From: Sphingomonas faeni
Lineage (GTDB): Bacteria > Pseudomonadota > Alphaproteobacteria > Sphingomonadales > Sphingomonadaceae
Assembly: GCF_030817315.1 (NCBI RefSeq)
Contig: NZ_JAUSZF010000001.1
Span: 2,685,001-2,749,000, forward strand
Reading direction: 5' to 3'
DNA: 64,000 nucleotides
Every line of letters starts with the position of its first letter. The stretch's first letter is position 1. Positions 8,989 to 52,924 of the stretch are shown one piece after another. Below the pieces are notes generated by a model. It saw only the letters and a list, made by a program, of their open reading frames with translations. It was not told the DNA's origin and searched no databases. Both the position numbers and the translations under genes were made by a program.

Positions 8989-9036
8989 TCTGACGTCTTT
9001 CCGGTCTATTGCACCGGTCGCGTCGCAAATTTGCCG

Positions 9037-9135
9037 CCCCGGCGCAGGCCGGGTCCAAGTGGAAAGGTCGAAGTAACGGAGCGCTATCCTTCGTTACCTC
9101 TGGCTCCCAATTGGACCCCGGCCTGCGCCGGGGAG
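9037..9135. repeat. palindromic intergenic element, family A copy 1
   Basis: About 100 bp, with ends ccccggcgcaggccggg and the inverse ccggcctgcgccgggg, inner arms tccaagtggaaaggtcg / tcccaattgga, and a core containing 'agtaacggagcgc'. Four further copies with the same arms and core lie at 17931, 21958, 25342 and 41185. It sits between two convergent genes (ppa and the GNAT gene). Confidence 0.8.
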
Positions 9136-9174
9136 GAATTACTCGACGGGACCGGTGAGGGACGGCGCCCAGAC

Positions 9175-10756: not shown

Positions 10757-10780
10757 GATAAGGCGCCCACCTCCACACTG

Positions 10781-10863
10781 CGTCATCCTGACGAAAGTCA
10801 GGATCCAGGGTAACGAACGTCGCCCTTCATGGCTCTGGATCCTGCCTTTCGTCAGGATGACGG
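10781..10863. repeat. palindromic intergenic element, family B copy 1
   Basis: A strong inverted repeat: cgtcatcctgacgaaagtca... on one side and ...cctttcgtcaggatgacg on the other, with inner ggatccaggg / ctctggatcc. Further copies occur at 38271 (with homopolymer ends) and 52778. It lies beyond the ispG stop codon and could also act as a weak stem-loop for transcript 3' ends, though it has no T-run. Confidence 0.75.
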
Positions 10864-16508: not shown

Positions 16509-18110
16509 TTACGGACGAAGCGGGCCCCAGGCCGGATCGGAGCCGTCGAGCGGCGTCGGGATCTTGCGCTCGTTGACCCCGGTGAGGTCGACCGACCAGA
16601 GGTCCGCCTTGCCGCCGCTGCCGCGTCCCGAGCGATAGAAGTTGATCACGCGACCGTTCGGCGACCAGCTCGGACCTTCATCCTGCCAGTCGTTGGTGAG
16701 CAATTTCTCGCCGCCGCCGCTCGGGCTCATGATGCCGATCCGGAAACCGCCGCCGAGCTTGGTGAACGCGATCAGGTCGCCGCGCGGGCTCCAGACCGGC
16801 GTCGCATAGCGCCCGCCGCCAAAGCTGATCCGTTGCTGGTTCGATCCGTCGGCGTTCATCACGTAGATCTGCTGCCCACCCGAGCGGTCGCTCTCGAACA
16901 CGATCCGCGAGCCGTCCGGCGAATAGCTGCCGCCGGTATCGATCCCCGGCGAGTTGGTCAGCCGCTGCGGGGTGCCGCCCTGCGCCGAGACGCGGTAGAC
17001 ATCGGTGTTACCGCCCTGCGCCATCGAGAACAGGATGTTGCGCCCATCGGGCGAGAAGCGTGGCGCAAACGTCAGGTTCGCGTTTGACACGACGAGCCGC
17101 TGCTTGCCCGACCCTATATCGTAGACATAGATCGCCGGGCGATTGTTGAGATAGCTCATATAGACGATCGACTGCTTGTTCGGCGCAAACCGCGGCGTTA
17201 GCACGATCGACTGGCCGTTGGTCAGGAAGCGGTGATTGGCCCCGTCCTGATCCATGATCGCGAGCCGCTTGATCCGGCGCCCCTTGGGTCCGGTCTCGGA
17301 CACATAGACGACGCGGCTGTCGAAATACGCGCCTTCACCGGTGAGGCGGGTGTAGACCATGTCGGCGCATTTATGCCCTGCGCGACGCCAGTCCGACGGC
17401 GGTACCACGAATCCGGTGCGGGTCAGCTCGGCCTTGGAGGACACGTCGTAGAGGTAGCAGCCGACCGTCAGGTTGCCGTCGCCATTGGCGCGAATGAACC
17501 CCTGCACCAGCGCCTGGGCGCCGGTGCTGCCCCAGTAATCGAACCCGGGTGCGGTGACTTCGGGGAAGCTGACCGGGCGCAGCTGGCCGGGGGAAAGCGG
17601 CGTGAACAGCCCCGAGTTGCGAAGATCGTTGGTGACGATATCGGCGAGCTGGCGGCCGAGGACGTCGGTCGAGCCGGCTGGCGTGGAGACGACTGCGGCG
17701 GTCGGCATGACCGGAATCGCGATCGGCATCGGCGCGGAGATGCCGCCGGTGACGTCGACCACGAGGCCGCCGGACTGGTCGCCGGCCGGGGCTGGCGCGG
17801 CGGAGCCAGCGGGCGCTTGTTGGGGTGCTGGTGAAGGTGCGTCCTGTGCGCTGGCTGCACCGGAGACAAACGCGAGCAACCCAACCGATGCAAGAATCGA
17901 TCGAGCCCGACGCCCACCCAACCCAGCTTCCACCCCGGCGAAGGCCGGGGCCCAATTGGGAGACGCCGCTGAGGGATCGTTGCGCGTCGTTACATCGACC
18001 TTTCCAATTGGGCCCCGGCCTCCGCCGGGGTGGTTGCCGTGCGCTGGGTGGTATTTCTCAACTGGAAGCAGCTGGCGCGAAGGGAAAAACCCCAGGATCG
18101 ATCGAGTCAT
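16509..18110 (-). CDS. tolB: TolB, with a repeat-bearing insertion before the signal peptide
   Basis: Periplasmic beta-propeller protein of the Tol-Pal system. The body is normal: an N-terminal domain (LGRQLADIVTNDLRNSGLF) and repeated WD-like blades (SPDGRNILFS, SPDGSRIVFESDRSGG, SPRGDLIAFTK). The start region is not. The natural ATG at 18110 (MTRSIL...) has GAGGA eight bases upstream and sits beside the tolA stop. The codons RSIL then recur 67 residues later in front of the real hydrophobic signal (ILASVGLLAFVSGAASA). The 201 bp between contains a family A palindrome read in frame. A Sec signal buried at residue 70 should not work, so translation may really begin at GTG 17933 or TTG 17921, giving about 470 residues, the usual length. 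Confidence 0.93.
   Translation of the reverse strand: MTRSILGFFPSRQLLPVEKYHPAHGNHPGGGRGPIGKVDVTTRNDPSAASPNWAPAFAGVEAGLGGRRARSILASVGLLAFVSGAASAQDAPSPAPQQAPAGSAAPAPAGDQSGGLVVDVTGGISAPMPIAIPVMPTAAVVSTPAGSTDVLGRQLADIVTNDLRNSGLFTPLSPGQLRPVSFPEVTAPGFDYWGSTGAQALVQGFIRANGDGNLTVGCYLYDVSSKAELTRTGFVVPPSDWRRAGHKCADMVYTRLTGEGAYFDSRVVYVSETGPKGRRIKRLAIMDQDGANHRFLTNGQSIVLTPRFAPNKQSIVYMSYLNNRPAIYVYDIGSGKQRLVVSNANLTFAPRFSPDGRNILFSMAQGGNTDVYRVSAQGGTPQRLTNSPGIDTGGSYSPDGSRIVFESDRSGGQQIYVMNADGSNQQRISFGGGRYATPVWSPRGDLIAFTKLGGGFRIGIMSPSGGGEKLLTNDWQDEGPSWSPNGRVINFYRSGRGSGGKADLWSVDLTGVNERKIPTPLDGSDPAWGPLRP
17931..18033. repeat. palindromic element, family A copy 2, inside the tolB 5' coding region
   Basis: Same ends and inner arms as the other family A copies (caccccggcgaaggccggggc, then aattggg... 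and ...ccaattggg), with the 'gtaac' core in reversed orientation. It is part of a 201-bp in-frame insertion-like segment flanked by the direct repeat ATCGATCGAG at 17896-17905 and 18097-18106. Confidence 0.8.
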
Positions 18111-18121
18111 AACGGACATCC

Positions 18122-19156
18122 TCAGCCGGGAAGTTTGTAGCGCAGGCTGAAATTGCTCCAGCCGTTCTGCACGTCATACAGGTCGTCGGGCAAACCGCGT
18201 AGCGGCGAACACCCGACAAAGGTCGCGATCGCCAGATCGTCGACGCGGTCGACATAACGCCGGTTGTCGTCGTCGACCCCAGCATGACCACTGATCGTCG
18301 GCCGCGACTTCAGCGTGCCGTCGCGGTTGAGCTTCAGGTTGATCGTCACGCGGATCCGCTCCGCGCCGGGCCCGGGCGTGACCTGACGGTTGGCGCAAGG
18401 CTGCACCTGCCGCAGGATCGCCGAGCCGATGTTCGCCGCCGCCTGCGCACCGAGCTTGGCCGCCTTGGGCGCCTCCGACTTGCTCGGCGAAGGATCGGCC
18501 GACAGCCCCTTCAGGAAATTGTCGCCGAGCCGCGAGCCGCGCGGACGCGACGCCTTGGCCTCCGCGGTCGAGCCGCTGCCCTTGGTCGCGGAAGGCTTCG
18601 CAGGCTTGGCCGAACTCGACGACGACTTGGCGGCAGTATCCGTCGATTTCGTCGCAGTCTTCGCCGGCGCCGATTTCGCCGGCGCAGCCTTGGTCGGCTT
18701 CGCCTTGGCGGGTGCTGGCTGCGGCTTCACGACAGGCTTCGCGACCGGGGCCGGCTTGGCGGCAGGCTTTGGTGGCGCAGGCTTGGGTTTGGGCTGCGGC
18801 TTGGGCGCGGGTTCCGGGGCCGGTTGTGGCTTGGGCGCAGGCTTTGGCGGCGCGGGCTTGGGCTGCGGCGCAGGCGGGGTCGGATCGGGCTTCGGCTCTG
18901 GTTCGGCCTCTTGCGGAGCCGGCGGCGCGGCATCCTCGGGCGCGCCTTCGTCCGGTGCGATCGATTGCGCAGGCGCCTCGGTCGATTGCGGCGCGGTCGC
19001 CTCCAGCGCGACGTCGGGCACCAGGCTCACGTCGATCGGCTGCTGCTGGATCTTGGGCGGTTCGGGCGCGCTGAGAAAGCCCAGCGACAGCAGGCCGAAC
19101 AGCACGACATGCCCGACGACGGCAACGCCTAAGCCGATCTTCTCCGAGCGATCCAT
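18122..19156 (-). CDS. tolA: TolA-like protein of the Tol-Pal system
   Basis: Links the inner-membrane TolQR motor to TolB/Pal. The 344-residue protein has a short cytoplasmic start, one transmembrane helix at about residues 8-27 (GLGVAVVGHVVLFGLLSLGF) and a long Pro/Lys/Ala-rich spacer at about residues 80-200 expected to span the periplasm. A C-terminal globular domain of TolA/TonB type follows (QPCANRQVTPG, then IRVTINLKLNRDGTL). Sequence conservation is low, as is usual for TolA, so its identity leans on position between tolR and tolB. The stop is 2 bp before an ATG in the tolB frame. Confidence 0.9.
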   Translation of the reverse strand: MDRSEKIGLGVAVVGHVVLFGLLSLGFLSAPEPPKIQQQPIDVSLVPDVALEATAPQSTEAPAQSIAPDEGAPEDAAPPAPQEAEPEPKPDPTPPAPQPKPAPPKPAPKPQPAPEPAPKPQPKPKPAPPKPAAKPAPVAKPVVKPQPAPAKAKPTKAAPAKSAPAKTATKSTDTAAKSSSSSAKPAKPSATKGSGSTAEAKASRPRGSRLGDNFLKGLSADPSPSKSEAPKAAKLGAQAAANIGSAILRQVQPCANRQVTPGPGAERIRVTINLKLNRDGTLKSRPTISGHAGVDDDNRRYVDRVDDLAIATFVGCSPLRGLPDDLYDVQNGWSNFSLRYKLPG

Positions 19157-25341: not shown

Positions 25342-25445
25342 CCACCCCGGCGGAGGCCGGGGCCCAGTTGGAAAGGTCGTGGTAACGCAGCGCGATCGCT
25401 AATCATCACCGTCCCCCACCTGGGCCCCGGCCTCCGCCGGGGTGG
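25342..25445. repeat. palindromic intergenic element, family A copy 4
   Basis: ccaccccggcggaggccggg, then gttggaaaggtcg, core 'ggtaacgcagcgcg', then ccacctgggccccgg and ccgccggggtgg. Same arms and core as the copies at 9037, 17931, 21958 and 41185. Confidence 0.8.
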
Positions 25446-25480
25446 GGCTGAGTAATGGAGCGCTTCCCTCCCCTACCTTG

Positions 25481-25532
25481 TTCACCCGCGAAGGCGGGTG
25501 CCCAGTCTGGGCACCCGCCTTCGCGGGTGAAC
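25481..25532. repeat. palindrome, family C copy 3, overlapping a start codon
   Basis: A nearly perfect palindrome: ttcacccgcgaaggcgggtg, spacer, then cacccgccttcgcgggtgaa. Its last bases (gtgaac) supply the GTG at 25527 used as the likely start of the following gene. It is closely similar to the copy at 41341, including the preceding 'ctaccttgtt'-type flank. Confidence 0.75.
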
Positions 25533-26966
25533 ATACTTCTGATGCTGGCAGCGCTGGCAATCCTCTTCATCACCCTCGCGCTCCTTCGCCCGGTAGACCA
25601 CGACGAGAGCCAATACGTCGCCGCCGCCGCGCTCACCGCCCACGGCCTCCTCCCCTACCGGGACTTCGCGTACCTCCAGACCCCGCTCCAGCCCTACCTC
25701 TTCGCACCCGTCGCAGCCCTAGCCGGCCCCTGGACCTGGCCAGCGCTCCGCATCCTCAACGCGCTGCTCGGCGTCGTGACGATAGCCTGCATCCACACCG
25801 CCGCCCGAACCCTCGGCGCCAAACCCAAAGCCGCACTTGCCTGCGCAGCCCTGTTCGCGACCTGCGACATCCTTCTCTTCAGCATCGGCACCGCGCGTAA
25901 CGACGCGCTTCCCGCCGCGCTTCTGGCGGCCGCACTCCCCCTGATCGTCCGCCCCGCCATCACGCACAAAACCGCCGCACTCGCCGGCCTCCTCCTCGCC
26001 AGCGCCGCCGCCGCGAAGATCTCCTACGCGTTCCCCGCGCTGGCCTACGGCGTCTACGCGCTGGTCGATCGCCGCCACCGCCCTGCCGCGATCCTGCTCG
26101 GCACAGTCCCGGTGATCGCCTTCGTTGCGTGGAGTTACGCCACGAGCCCGGCCGGGTTCGTGTTCGGCACTTTCACCTTCCCGGCACGCGCCCCCGCCGA
26201 ATATTACGCACTCCGCCCGTGGAAGACGTCGCTGCCCGCCAAGGCGATCGATACGCTCAAGTTCCTCGCGCTCGGCGCAGCCCTCCCCGCGCTCGCGCTG
26301 GTCGCGCGCGACGCCTGGCGACGCCGCACGGTCGGACTGCTCGATTGGCTAATCCTCGCCGGCTTGATCGCCGCACTGCTGCCGTTCCCGACGTGGCGGC
26401 AATATCTCCTCCCGGCCCTGCCCGCGTTGTTCGTCCGCCTCTCGATGATCCCGCCCCCGAGCCGTGCATGGCGGATCGCGTTCGCGACATTCGCCATCGC
26501 CGGCCTCGCCCCCTCGGTCGCGGCCCTGGCGGATTCGGACGGCCTCTCGCTGACCCAGGCCCAGCGCGAAGGCCGAGCGGTCGGCCGCACGCTCGACCGA
26601 CGTGGACTCGAAGGCCCGATCACCACGCTATCTCCGCAAGTCCTACCCGCGGCCAATCGCCTGCCTGACCCCGCCTTCGCCACCGGCCCGTTCTATTTCC
26701 GCAGCACAACGCTGCTCGACGCGTCTCAGGAACGCGCACTTCACTTGATCTCCAGAGCGCGCATAAAGCTCGACGGATCGACGATTCTCACCGGCGGCGA
26801 AGGCCCAGCGACCAGCGGCGACGCCAGCCTCGACCACGCACTCGCCAGCGCCGCGCGCGACGCCGGGTACGACGCGATCCCGATCCCCGGCACGCGCTTC
26901 ACAGCCTTTAGGCCGCCAGCTCGCGCCCCTGCTTCGCCGCAACCAGTCCCGCATAATAGTCCATGA
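25527..26966 (+). CDS. multispanning glycosyltransferase-like membrane protein (GT39/PMT-like)
   Basis: A 479-residue polytopic membrane protein. After the first helix comes PVDHDESQYVAAAAL, resembling the catalytic D/E loop of GT-C enzymes that use polyprenyl-phosphate sugars. About eight to ten further hydrophobic segments follow (including ALAGLLLASAAAAKISYAF and LIAALLPFPTWRQYLLPAL) and a C-terminal soluble part of about 130 residues. Family assignment is by architecture and this motif, so treat the function as probable only. The start is either GTG 25527, made by the adjoining palindrome, or ATG 25542 in the helix; neither has a good ribosome site. Its 3' end overlaps the convergent GT4 gene by 59 bp. 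Confidence 0.72.
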   Translation: MNILLMLAALAILFITLALLRPVDHDESQYVAAAALTAHGLLPYRDFAYLQTPLQPYLFAPVAALAGPWTWPALRILNALLGVVTIACIHTAARTLGAKPKAALACAALFATCDILLFSIGTARNDALPAALLAAALPLIVRPAITHKTAALAGLLLASAAAAKISYAFPALAYGVYALVDRRHRPAAILLGTVPVIAFVAWSYATSPAGFVFGTFTFPARAPAEYYALRPWKTSLPAKAIDTLKFLALGAALPALALVARDAWRRRTVGLLDWLILAGLIAALLPFPTWRQYLLPALPALFVRLSMIPPPSRAWRIAFATFAIAGLAPSVAALADSDGLSLTQAQREGRAVGRTLDRRGLEGPITTLSPQVLPAANRLPDPAFATGPFYFRSTTLLDASQERALHLISRARIKLDGSTILTGGEGPATSGDASLDHALASAARDAGYDAIPIPGTRFTAFRPPARAPASPQPVPHNSP

Positions 26967-38270: not shown

Positions 38271-38382
38271 CCCCCCCCCCCATCGTCATCCTGACGAAAG
38301 TCAGGACCCAGGGTCAAAAGCGTCGTCCTCCACGACTCTGGGTCCTGACTTTCGTCAGGATGACGATGGGGGGGGGGGGGGG
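38271..38382. repeat. family B palindrome with poly-C and poly-G ends
   Basis: A perfect-looking inverted repeat of 112 bp. The C11 run at 38271-38281 is followed by atcgtcatcctgacgaaagt and caggacccaggg; the far side mirrors this, ending in a G15 run at 38368-38382. The core is shared with the copies at 10781 and 52778, but only this copy has the homopolymer ends. Confidence 0.8.
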
Positions 38383-41184: not shown

Positions 41185-41289
41185 ACCACCCCGGCGCAGG
41201 CCGGGGCCCAACTGGGAAGGTTGCAGTAACGAAGCGTGGTCCTACGTTGGCGACGGCTCTCAATTGGGCCCCGGCCTCCGCCGGGGTGG
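41185..41289. repeat. palindromic intergenic element, family A copy 5
   Basis: ccaccccggcgcaggccggg, then aactgggaaggttg, core 'cagtaacgaagcg', then ctctcaattgggccccgg and ccgccggggtgg. Lies between ctaE and the DUF983 gene. Confidence 0.8.
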
Positions 41290-41340
41290 TGGCGATTGGT
41301 GGTAAGGCACTGGCGCAAACCGACCGGCCTACCCTTACCT

Positions 41341-41392
41341 TGTTCTCCCGCGAAGGCGGGAGCCCAGTCTGGGTCCCCGCCTTCGCGGGGAA
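41341..41392. repeat. palindrome, family C copy 4
   Basis: ttctcccgcgaaggcgggag, gcccagtctgggt core, then ccccgccttcgcggggaa. Closely matches the copy at 25481-25532, including the 'ccagtctggg' core. Confidence 0.75.
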
Positions 41393-41415
41393 ACATGAAG
41401 GGGAGCGCTGACCGC

Positions 41416-48833: not shown

Positions 48834-48872
48834 AACTTCCGAAAGCCCCAAACCCCACCTCGTTCACCCCAC

Positions 48873-48946
48873 CCCGTTCGTGCTGAGCGAAGTCGAAGCA
48901 CCTTCGCTTGGGGCACACCCTTCGACTTCGCTCAGGGCGAACGGAA
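48873..48946. repeat. palindromic element, family E (tgagcgaagtcgaa)
   Basis: ccgttcgtgctgagcgaagtcgaa, short core, and the inverse ttcgacttcgctcagggcga then acgg. The same arms occur at 49709-49870 (inside a reading frame) and 50190-50287. Confidence 0.8.
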
Positions 48947-48967
48947 GCTGGTGGGTCAGTCGGAAAA

Positions 48968-50152
48968 TCAGCCCCGCGGCCTCTTACCCGCCAGCGACGA
49001 CAGCACGCCGCGGAGCGTTCGGATTTCTTGGCTCGACCAGCCCGGCTTGGTCAGCAACGTGCGCAGCGTCCGCCGCGTCGACTGCATCTTGTCGGGCAGG
49101 TGAAAGAACCCTGCGCCCATCAGCATCGCGTCGAGCTGCCCGATCATCCCGTCGAGCTCCTCCTGCGGCGCGGGCGGCATGATCGGGTTGATCGACGGCT
49201 GCGACAGCTCGCGCTCGGCAGTCAGGCCCTTCGACCATTCATAGGCGACCAGGATCACCGCCTGGGCGAGGTTGAGCGAGCCGAACTCCGGATTGATCGG
49301 CACCGTGATGATCGTCCGCGCCACCGCGACGTCGTCGGTTTCTAGGCCGGAGCGCTCGGGCCCGAACAGGATCGCGGAGCGGCCGGGGGCGGCGTGGATC
49401 TCGGTCGCGGCCTGTTCGGGGGTCACGACCGGCTTGGTCACGCCGCGCTTGCGGACGGTGGTGGCGAACACCTGCGCGCAGTCGGCAGTGGCGGCGGCGA
49501 CGCTGTCGTAGACCTTCGCGTTCTGGAGAACGATGTCGGCGCCGCTGGCGGCGGGGCCGGCGGAGGGGTTTGGCCAACCGTCCCTGGGGGAGACGAGGCG
49601 CATTTCGGTGAGGCCGAAATTGAGCATGGCGCGGGCGGCTTTGCCGATGTTCTCGCCGAGTTGGGGGCGGACGAGGACAATGACCGGGGGCGCGGTTTCG
49701 TCCGCCAAGGTGCTTCGACTTCGCTCAGCACGAATGGGAGGAGGAGATGAGGGCTCGTTCCCCTGTTCCGATCGGACATGGTTCTCGCCGACCGAGGGAA
49801 TATCCTTCCCCCCTTCCGACGGGATGCCCTCCCCACCTTCCGTTCGCCCTGAGCGAAGTCGAAGGGCACGTTCCCGCGGGGGGATCGCCGCATCGTGTAG
49901 ATCCGCCCAATCCTCAAACGCGAGCGCTTCCTTCTTGCGCCGTGACCAGCCCTTGACCTGGAACTCCGCAGCGAGGGCCTCCTGTCGGCTCCCGAAATCC
50001 TGGCACCACAAGAGCGTCACTGGCCGTCGCGTCTGCGTGTATCCCGAAATCTCGCCGAGGTTATGCTGGCCGATCCTGCGCTCCAGGTTATCGGTATGTC
50101 CGGTGTAATAACTGTCGTCGGCGCAGCGCACCACATAGGCCCAAAATGTCAT
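48968..50152 (-). CDS. trmJ: fused frame: GIY-YIG domain + TrmJ-type tRNA methyltransferase
   Basis: One uninterrupted frame of 394 residues joining two proteins that are normally separate. Residues 1 to about 90 are a complete small GIY-YIG protein (FWAYVVRCADDSYYTGHT, RRPVTLLWCQDF, KGWSRRKKEAL). Residues about 150-394 are a SpoU-class methyltransferase, best matched to TrmJ (tRNA Cm32/Um32): VLVRPQLGENIGKAARAML, LVSPRDGWPNPSA, ILFGPERSGLETDDV and PINPEFGSLNLAQAV. The 50-60 residues between are encoded by a palindromic repeat. TTG 49708 would give a 246-residue TrmJ of normal length, so the methyltransferase may also be made independently. Downstream of nrdR on the same strand. Confidence 0.87.
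   Translation of the reverse strand: MTFWAYVVRCADDSYYTGHTDNLERRIGQHNLGEISGYTQTRRPVTLLWCQDFGSRQEALAAEFQVKGWSRRKKEALAFEDWADLHDAAIPPRERALRLRSGRTEGGEGIPSEGGKDIPSVGENHVRSEQGNEPSSPPPIRAERSRSTLADETAPPVIVLVRPQLGENIGKAARAMLNFGLTEMRLVSPRDGWPNPSAGPAASGADIVLQNAKVYDSVAAATADCAQVFATTVRKRGVTKPVVTPEQAATEIHAAPGRSAILFGPERSGLETDDVAVARTIITVPINPEFGSLNLAQAVILVAYEWSKGLTAERELSQPSINPIMPPAPQEELDGMIGQLDAMLMGAGFFHLPDKMQSTRRTLRTLLTKPGWSSQEIRTLRGVLSSLAGKRPRG
49709..49870. repeat. family E element read as the GIY-YIG/TrmJ linker
   Basis: Inverted arms gtgcttcgacttcgctcagc and gctgagcgaagtcgaag-like sequence (cctgagcgaagtcgaagggc) sit about 100 bp apart inside the fused frame. The encoded linker (RLRSGRTEGG ... RAERSRSTLA) is repeat-derived in both arms, as shown by SGRTE and AERSR. 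Confidence 0.75.
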
Positions 50153-50189
50153 GCTCGCGGCTTACGCGGGGGCGTGGTGTTGGGACAAG

Positions 50190-50287
50190 TCCTTCGATTT
50201 CGCTCAGGACGAACGGAAGGGGGCTGCTTCTTCTCGATAGTAAGGCAGTCTACCCACCCCGTTCGTCCTGAGCGAAGTCGAAGGACA
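50190..50287. repeat. palindromic element, family E
   Basis: ccttcgatttcgctcaggac with the inverse gttcgtcctgagcgaagtcg then aagg around a core of about 40 bp. It lies between nrdR and the GIY-YIG start. Confidence 0.8.
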
Positions 50288-52692: not shown

Positions 52693-52777
52693 CTGGCGTA
52701 ATCCTGTGGCGGGAGATCGGGTGCCCAGCCCCTTACCGACCCGAGCACGGATTTGCCACACCTGTTCGCTGCTGCTT

Positions 52778-52869
52778 CGTCATCCTGGTGAAAGTCAGGA
52801 CCCGGGGTAACCCAGGGCAACGTAGCGCATTACCGGTGGCTCTGGGTCCTGACTTTCGTCAGGATGACG
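52778..52869. repeat. palindromic intergenic element, family B copy 3
   Basis: cgtcatcctggtgaaagtca, inner ggacccggggtaa / ggctctgggtcc, and ctgactttcgtcaggatgac at the far end. It sits between divergent genes (rpiB and the lipoprotein gene). Confidence 0.75.
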
Positions 52870-52924
52870 CGCTAAGATGAAAGATCGAGATCTGCGCTAA
52901 ATGCCGACCGTGAAGGAGACATCC

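What the first reader, a model, noticed from the sequence alone, without database searches (positions are those of the whole stretch)
17896..18110. Repeat-bearing in-frame insertion in front of the TolB signal peptide
The tolB frame begins ATG ACT CGA TCG ATC CT (MTRSIL), then the same CTCGATCGAT...CT recurs 201 bp later, directly before the true signal peptide (RSILASVGLLAFVSG). The direct repeat ATCGATCGAG at 17896-17905 and 18097-18106 brackets a segment containing a family A palindrome. The spacing of 201 bp (67 codons) keeps the frame open. This looks like an element insertion with a target duplication of about 10 bp, or a local duplication. The signal peptide should fail if translation starts at the original ATG, so the element may have supplied a new start (GTG 17933 or TTG 17921). 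Caveat: GATCGATC-type words are common in these genomes, so the direct repeat could be partly chance.
Basis: partly seen in the sequence, partly recalled or inferred. Interest (0 to 1): 0.75.

Follow-up and report, generated by a model that had tools for sequence, protein, structure and literature searches.

The report
Palindromic repeat inside the tolB leader
In one group of Sphingomonas bacteria a short repeated DNA palindrome sits, still readable as protein, at the very front of the gene for the envelope protein TolB, probably tolerated because that part of the protein is cut off during export.

Summary
In detail: in tolB (window 16509-18119, minus strand) a family-A palindrome (17930-18034) lies in frame between the original start (ATG 18110) and the signal-peptide core, bracketed by ATCGATCGAG 201 bp apart. 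It is an old insertion: 22 of the 24 nearest genomes (S. faeni/aurantiaca/aerolata group) carry it; none of 81 other tolB loci read does. The two empty genomes sit in different subclades, so emptiness looks secondary. The 22 insertion alleles are all different and all open, and the signal core is in frame with the start in every one, despite about 19 length changes. Yet pN/pS in the extension is 0.9-1.0, against 0.25 in the signal peptide and 0.04 in mature TolB. Best reading: translation still starts at the original ATG, runs through the hairpin and makes a 74-89 residue leader that signal peptidase removes; selection keeps the frame, hardly the sequence. It resembles Rickettsia palindromic elements in kind. 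No protein data were available.

The parts
16509..18119 (-). tolB, 536 aa as read from ATG 18119 (533 from ATG 18110)
   Evidence: ORF; Pfam TolB_N and PD40; neighbours carry MotA_ExbB/TolQ, ExbD/TolR, thioesterase and OmpA domains in tol-pal order
18108..18110 (-). likely start codon (ATG ACT); ribosome-site-like GAGG at 18120-18123 in the end of tolA
   Evidence: site energy -6.2 or -6.4 kcal/mol in all 22 alleles, within the best quarter of random positions but not beyond their best 5%
18097..18106 (.). outer direct repeat copy (RSIL of the original start)
18035..18096 (-). stretch between start repeat and palindrome: first half fairly conserved, then hypervariable codons
   Evidence: hypervariable codons pN/pS 0.98; 6 distinct start-to-element lengths, all in frame
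17930..18034 (-). family-A palindromic element, read in tolB as HPGGGRGPIGKVDVTTRNDPSAASPNWAPAFAGV
   Evidence: 30-nt arms 97% complementary; many copies in the genome; predicted RNA hairpin -81.3 kcal/mol
17931..17933 (-). GTG at the element end, candidate internal start (disfavoured)
   Evidence: GTG in all 22 alleles; ribosome-site energy -2.2, random median -2.45
17919..17921 (-). TTG, candidate internal start (not excluded as a secondary start)
   Evidence: energy -6.6 here; no ATG/GTG/TTG after the element-end GTG in 2 of 22 alleles
17896..17905 (.). inner direct repeat copy
17847..17903 (-). signal peptide RSILASVGLLAFVSGAASA; expected cleavage before QDAPS
   Evidence: pN/pS 0.25 across 22 alleles; the cleavage site is inferred from the A-x-A rule (recalled), not tested
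18122..19156 (-). tolA by position and Lys/Pro/Ala-rich composition; ends 2 bp before the first ATG of tolB
   Evidence: ORF; no Pfam match at E 0.001, so the name rests on position and recall

Best explanation
Before the S. aerolata and S. faeni/aurantiaca lineages split, DNA carrying a family-A palindrome entered the first codons of tolB and left the start on one side and the signal-peptide core on the other, in some alleles with a short repeat of the start at both ends (shown by comparison; the way of insertion is unknown). Ribosomes still start at the original ATG behind a site at the end of tolA, read through the element in an open frame, and make a TolB precursor with a 74-89 residue leader (inferred from frame conservation). 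Sec recognises the hydrophobic core, which has Arg directly before it in all 22 alleles, and signal peptidase removes everything in front of QDAPS, so mature TolB is unchanged (inferred). Selection therefore keeps the frame and the absence of stops but hardly the amino acids. The arms stay conserved as they do in intergenic copies, by whatever keeps the family alike. The insertion is dispensable: two lineages now carry an empty allele.
For: 22 of the 24 nearest genomes have it. All 22 alleles differ, are open, and have the signal core in frame; nine start-to-core distances, 180-225 nt. By parsimony 11 length changes before and 8 after the element, each part always divisible by 3. If unconstrained, the inferred changes should have made 13-14 stops; none is seen (element and post-element alone about 4.4 expected, P about 0.01, worked out by hand). 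Three alleles carry what looks like cancelling +1/-1 shifts (RSILGFFPSR to RFDLGFR[PL]SR). pN/pS 0.98 / 0.91 / 0.89 in hypervariable stretch, element and post-element, against 0.25, 0.11 and 0.04 in signal peptide, linker and mature TolB. Control: the intergenic stretch holding another copy has a length divisible by 3 in 4 of 10 genomes read. Turning the element round would put a stop in frame in 19 of 21 alleles tested. The empty genomes nest in two subclades, in the tolAB tree and in an 18.8-kb tree of 11 genomes without the locus.
Against: No protein or ribosome data. 57-72 residues before the signal core (from ATG 18110) is much more than in the autotransporter examples seen (whole signals of 52-55). 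L036, L037 and L038 have an ATG right before the signal core, and many alleles have internal codons with ribosome-site energies as good as or better than the original (-6 to -10), so short forms may also be made. The energy of the original start (-6.2) is not exceptional, and the last 44 nt of tolA are as invariant as the start, so invariance there need not mean use of the start. The stop expectation is inflated where hypervariable codons align poorly. Anchors close to three control copies gave 0 of 8, 5 of 10 and 8 of 9 differences divisible by 3 (tolB 8 of 8), so length alone can mislead. The lack of inversions in tolB is weak evidence: 4 of 30 cells elsewhere, 0 of 9 in tolB. The loop diverges somewhat less in tolB (0.22 in nine genomes) than at control loci (0.28-0.34), which fits slight constraint rather than pure neutrality.
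Confidence: 0.7

Rival explanations
1. The element or its flank supplies a new start (GTG 17933, TTG 17921 or equivalents), and the original ATG gives at most a side product.
For: The element-end GTG is present in all 22 alleles; after it a compact signal peptide follows. L036, L037 and L038 have ATG right at the signal core. Ribosome-site energies at some downstream codons reach -10.
Against: Frame and openness are kept upstream of every internal candidate. The GTG lies in the predicted hairpin stem with a random-like site (-2.2). No further start codon in 2 of 22 alleles.
Confidence: 0.17
2. Both starts are used: the original ATG gives a long precursor and an internal codon a short one, and both mature to the same TolB (this overlaps with the best explanation).
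For: The long and short forms do not exclude each other; internal codons with fair sites exist in 20 of 22 alleles.
Against: No internal codon with a good site is at the same place in all alleles.
Confidence: 0.25
3. The direct repeat is chance, or two separate needs for Arg-Ser-hydrophobic codons, not a duplication from the insertion.
For: No shared 10-mer beside 30 other copies. It does not abut the palindrome. In S. aerolata NW12 and Leaf20 the longest shared word is 5 nt, and in 8 of 22 alleles it is 4-6 nt.
Against: 0.2% chance for a 10-mer and below 0.01% for the 12-mer of L036/L038 at a fixed spacing.
Confidence: 0.4
4. Assembly or annotation artefact.
For: Many of the genomes are drafts.
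Against: 22 different alleles in 22 genomes.
Confidence: 0.01

Closest known systems
Rickettsia palindromic elements (RPE; Ogata et al. 2000, 2002)
   Same: Short palindromic repeat in many copies, inserted in frame in host genes and read as part of the protein (passage of review PMC10969869; the original papers were not seen).
   Different: Other genus; RPE sequences were not compared. Here the insertion lies before the signal peptide in a part expected to be cut off. Of 24 long-frame matches read besides tolB, one other reached a real gene, at its C-terminal end.
Enterobacterial repeat units RU-1/2/3 (ERIC-like); [quoted passage not shown]
   Same: A small repeat fused to an open frame at a signal peptide (passages of PMC2759123).
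   Different: There the repeat itself forms part of the predicted signal of a putative exported protein. Here it lies in front of the signal core of a conserved gene and is followed across 22 alleles.
REP / REPIN elements with RAYT transposases
   Same: GC-rich palindromes in high copy number (listing abstracts).
   Different: No Y1_Tnp match in this genome; unit about 105 bp with a 44-nt loop.
MITEs
   Same: About 105 bp, terminal inverted repeats, too short for a transposase.
   Different: No flanking duplication in 31 copies; no partner transposase was sought beyond Y1.
Long signal peptides of autotransporters (e.g. EspP, 55 residues)
   Same: N-terminal extension in front of a Sec signal (passages of PMC2805444).
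   Different: In EspP the N-domain is residues 1-26 and carries a conserved pattern; this extension is longer and nearly neutral in sequence.

Membership tests
Rickettsia palindromic element-like coding palindromes | palindromic repeat in frame inside a conserved gene that stays open | tested here: met
Rickettsia palindromic element-like coding palindromes | same family inserted in frame in several unrelated genes | tested here: inconclusive
   24 matches with stop-free frames of 212 aa or more besides tolB were read by eye (17, 7); one (1642243, minus) continues a SPOR-domain gene; copies with shorter frames were not read
Rickettsia palindromic element-like coding palindromes | sequence homology to an RPE family | not tested
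   no RPE sequences were fetched
MITE | terminal inverted repeats and no transposase gene | tested here: met
   30-nt arms 97% complementary, 105 bp
MITE | target-site duplication | tested here: not met
   31 copies (tolB included), duplicate lengths 3-12, boundary shifts -4 to +8: at most 2 of 31 match at any setting
MITE | parent transposase with the same ends | not tested
   not sought
REP/REPIN with RAYT | RAYT (Y1_Tnp) gene in the genome | tested here: not met
   PF01797: 0 matches in the own genome; 5 of 14 control genomes positive
Insertion with duplicated target at tolB | direct repeats flank the insert and a single copy is left in an empty allele | tested here: inconclusive
   empty alleles read ATGACTCGATCGATTTTC, one copy, but their signal core differs (53-67% identity) and they nest within the insertion group
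Extended Sec signal peptide | leader translated, exported and cleaved | not testable with these tools
   needs protein data

The most novel reading that the evidence does not exclude
The leader before a cleaved signal peptide is a safe harbour for selfish palindromes, and the retained -81 kcal/mol hairpin inside the coding region also paces translation between tolA and tolB, so that the element sets the amount or timing of TolB export.
Probability: 0.12. Interest if true: 0.72.

Novelty: new variant of a known kind. Interest (0 to 1): 0.5.

Why it matters
It would show a repeat of the coding-palindrome type, known best from obligate intracellular Rickettsia, kept since before the split of several species in a free-living bacterium, in a conserved envelope gene, with selection on frame but hardly on sequence. 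It makes a testable case of how long and how random an N-terminal tail the Sec pathway tolerates, and it warns that start-site annotation of such tolB genes is unreliable.

Tried and rejected
Family target-site duplication: tested on 31 copies that matched a pattern (27 in the 38 stretches in the window, tolB included), none. My first flank test used 70-nt flanks, which miss even the tolB repeat; with 80 nt only tolB shares a 10-mer, 0 of 30 others. Clean empty sites for other family-A copies in ten syntenic relatives: most copies have orthologues, so no clear insertion boundary came out. Mobilisation by an own RAYT: no Y1_Tnp. Element as known RNA: eight matches, seven microRNA precursors and one lncRNA, all below their gathering scores, as any long hairpin may give. 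Codon-usage scan around copies: its training set mixed in shadow frames, so its scores were not used. The frame count (4 of 31 copies open) came from a shifting pattern boundary; recounted: 17 of 23 copies with a 98-nt core, tolB included, are open in the tolB frame, so an open copy is not special. Empty allele as ancestral state: not favoured because the two empty genomes nest in different subclades in two trees (rooted by me on S. aerolata NW12 and Leaf20); but an empty allele brought in from outside remains possible, since both have the same deviant signal peptide. Folding the precursor was not run.

Literature: ten searches of the open library. Searches gave 0 papers, 28 and 39 one paper each. 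In 55 I saw 12 of 74 papers and in 58 8 of 24, as titles and abstract starts; none of those shown is about a Sphingomonas palindrome in tolB. Passages read: PMC10969869, PMC2759123, PMC2805444. PMC186582 is not held.

Full report
What is there. The window lies in a Sphingomonas chromosome (G000:C1:2685001-2749000); the nearest named relatives are S. aurantiaca, S. faeni, S. aerolata and unnamed Sphingomonas strains. tolB runs on the minus strand from ATG 18119/18110 to 16509, directly behind the tolA stop, with TolB_N and PD40 domains. Its neighbours carry thioesterase, TolQ/ExbB, TolR/ExbD and OmpA domains in tol-pal order; the tolA frame itself has no Pfam match. Between the start (MSVMTRSIL) and the signal-peptide core (RSILASVGLLAFVSGAASA) lie 67 extra codons, whose middle is a 105-bp palindrome with 30-nt arms, 97% complementary. 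Its translation (HPGGGRGPIGKVDVTTRNDPSAASPNWAPAFAGV) matches 103 distinct places in the genome at E up to 1 (merged).

Is the repeat more than chance? At a fixed spacing a shared 10-mer occurs in 0.2% of random draws in this window and a 12-mer in 0.007%. For any 80-nt flanks of a 105-nt gap it is 3.4%, and the window has 155 exact 10-mer pairs at 100-300 bp. Among 22 alleles the longest shared word is 12 nt in 2, 10 in 3, 8 in 9 and 4-6 in 8. The 12-mer of L036 and L038 contains the start codon. It may be the old duplicated start or may have been regained; those two alleles are not sisters in the tree. Of 30 other family-A copies none shares a 10-mer in its 80-nt flanks.

Relatives. In a search of 295 genus genomes the 24 best matches are a close group: 22 carry the insertion; 2 (G069 = strain PP-CE-1G-424, G255 = strain H160509, by identity with named loci) do not. 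The 24 genomes have 24 different alleles. Of 83 other tolB loci on hand (some the same genome under two ids) 81 could be read, and none has a family-A core in the 500 nt before the mature part; the other genomes were not read one by one. S. aerolata NW12 and strain Leaf20, the outer branch, have the insertion at the same codons, so it predates that split. The empty alleles fall inside two different subclades, in the tolA-tolB tree and in a tree of 11 genomes from 23 tiles (18.8 kb) outside the locus. Their signal peptide is 97% identical between the two but 53-67% identical to those of the insertion alleles compared, while the bins after it are 80-99% identical. No other genome of 295 matched that segment closely over its whole length. 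A single empty allele that moved by recombination fits best.

Is the extension translated? All 22 insertion alleles are open with the signal core in frame. The distance from the first ATG to the core takes nine values from 180 to 225 nt; measured on DNA, the parts before and after the element are always divisible by 3, with 11 and 8 length changes by parsimony. In three alleles the start reads RFDLGFR[PL]SR instead of RSILGFFPSR, which the DNA explains best as +1/-1 shifts that cancel. About 483 inferred changes would have made 13-14 stops without constraint; none is seen. That number is inflated by poor alignment of the hypervariable codons; for the element and the stretch after it alone, about 4.4 would be expected and P is about 0.01 (by hand). 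Control: the stretch between the cox3-like gene and the next gene, which holds another family-A copy, has a length divisible by 3 in 4 of 10 genomes (the eleventh could not be read). Against this, closer anchors at three control loci gave 0 of 8, 5 of 10 and 8 of 9 differences divisible by 3, and 8 of 8 at tolB.

Is its sequence under selection? Hardly. pN/pS is 0.98 in the hypervariable stretch, 0.91 in the element, 0.89 after it and 0.59 in the first 15 codons, but 0.25 in the signal peptide, 0.11 in the linker, 0.04 in mature TolB and 0.08 in the TolA C-terminus. The arms hardly vary (0.05-0.06 per site, loop 0.19, 21 alleles), but the same holds at three intergenic loci (arms 0.04-0.06, loops 0.28-0.34), so that is a trait of the family. 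The loop varies a little less in tolB than there.

Which start? ATG 18110 has a site energy of -6.2 or -6.4 in all alleles, better than most random positions (quartile -4.1) but not exceptional (5% at -7.3). The first six codons are almost invariant among 20 alleles, but so are the last 44 nt of tolA. GTG 17933, at the element end, is in all 22 alleles with -2.2, the random median being -2.45. Codons further on have -6 to -10 in many alleles, but 2 of 22 have none. A start only inside the element would leave no reason to keep the frame upstream of it. Therefore I favour the original start, with a secondary internal start possible.

How it can work. The extension lies wholly before the expected signal-peptidase site, so mature TolB is the same whether the leader has 22 residues (empty allele) or 74-89 (counted from ATG 18110). 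An Arg directly before the hydrophobic core is present in all 22 alleles, which suits the positive-inside rule (recalled). Two-domain long signals are known from autotransporters (passages of PMC2805444). All of this step is inference.

What kind of thing. It works like the Rickettsia palindromic elements, coding palindromes fused in frame to host genes (review passage); it is not shown to be a member of that family. It is not a RAYT-driven REP in this genome, and it lacks the target duplication of a classical MITE. A precedent for a repeat at a signal peptide is RU-2 in YPO1552 (passages of PMC2759123). I read 24 further matches with stop-free frames of 212 aa or more (17, 7). By eye nearly all are shadow frames or lie before a gene; one (genome 1642243, minus strand) runs in frame from a gene with a full SPOR domain into an element at its C-terminal end. 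So tolB may not be the only fusion.

Verdict. A real, old, in-frame insertion, retained in most of a species group, translated in all likelihood and discarded with the signal peptide.

Noticed in passing
window 25342-25445 and 41186-41289, and the G033 copy in L149: The loop of family-A elements is turned round relative to the flanks in some strains: 2 of 7, 1 of 11 and 1 of 7 genomes; 0 of 4 and 0 of 1 at two further loci. Recombination between the arms or conversion by a copy in the other orientation could do it.
   Followed up: partly
L234 (genome C1:1642228-1642923, minus strand): A gene with a complete SPOR domain runs in frame through 34 more residues into a family-A element and ends 5 residues after it: a possible second fusion, at a C-terminus.
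   Followed up: partly
window 10770-10862, 38273-38365, 52777-52875: Another palindrome family (CGTCATCCTGACGAAAGTCAGGA...), three copies in the window.
   Followed up: no
window 25470-25534 and 41332-41396: A third palindrome family (CCCGCGAAGGCGGG...) lies right beside a family-A copy at both places, also in relatives.
   Followed up: no
window 48868-50286: Several inverted and direct copies of CCGTTCGTCCTGAGCGAAGTCGAAG-like words within 1.4 kb.
   Followed up: no
L010 and L051 (tolB of the two empty genomes): Nearly the same deviant signal peptide (FSSAAV[TM]AFAFSGTAIAQ) in two subclades, pointing to exchange of a short tract. No donor was found in 295 genus genomes.
   Followed up: partly
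window 9030-9138: A degenerate family-A copy, 67% and 73% like the reference copy in its two halves, missed by the strict pattern.
   Followed up: no
L036, L037, L038 (tolB): An ATG directly before the signal core (MTRSVLASVG or MARSVLASVG) recreates a compact start behind the element.
   Followed up: partly
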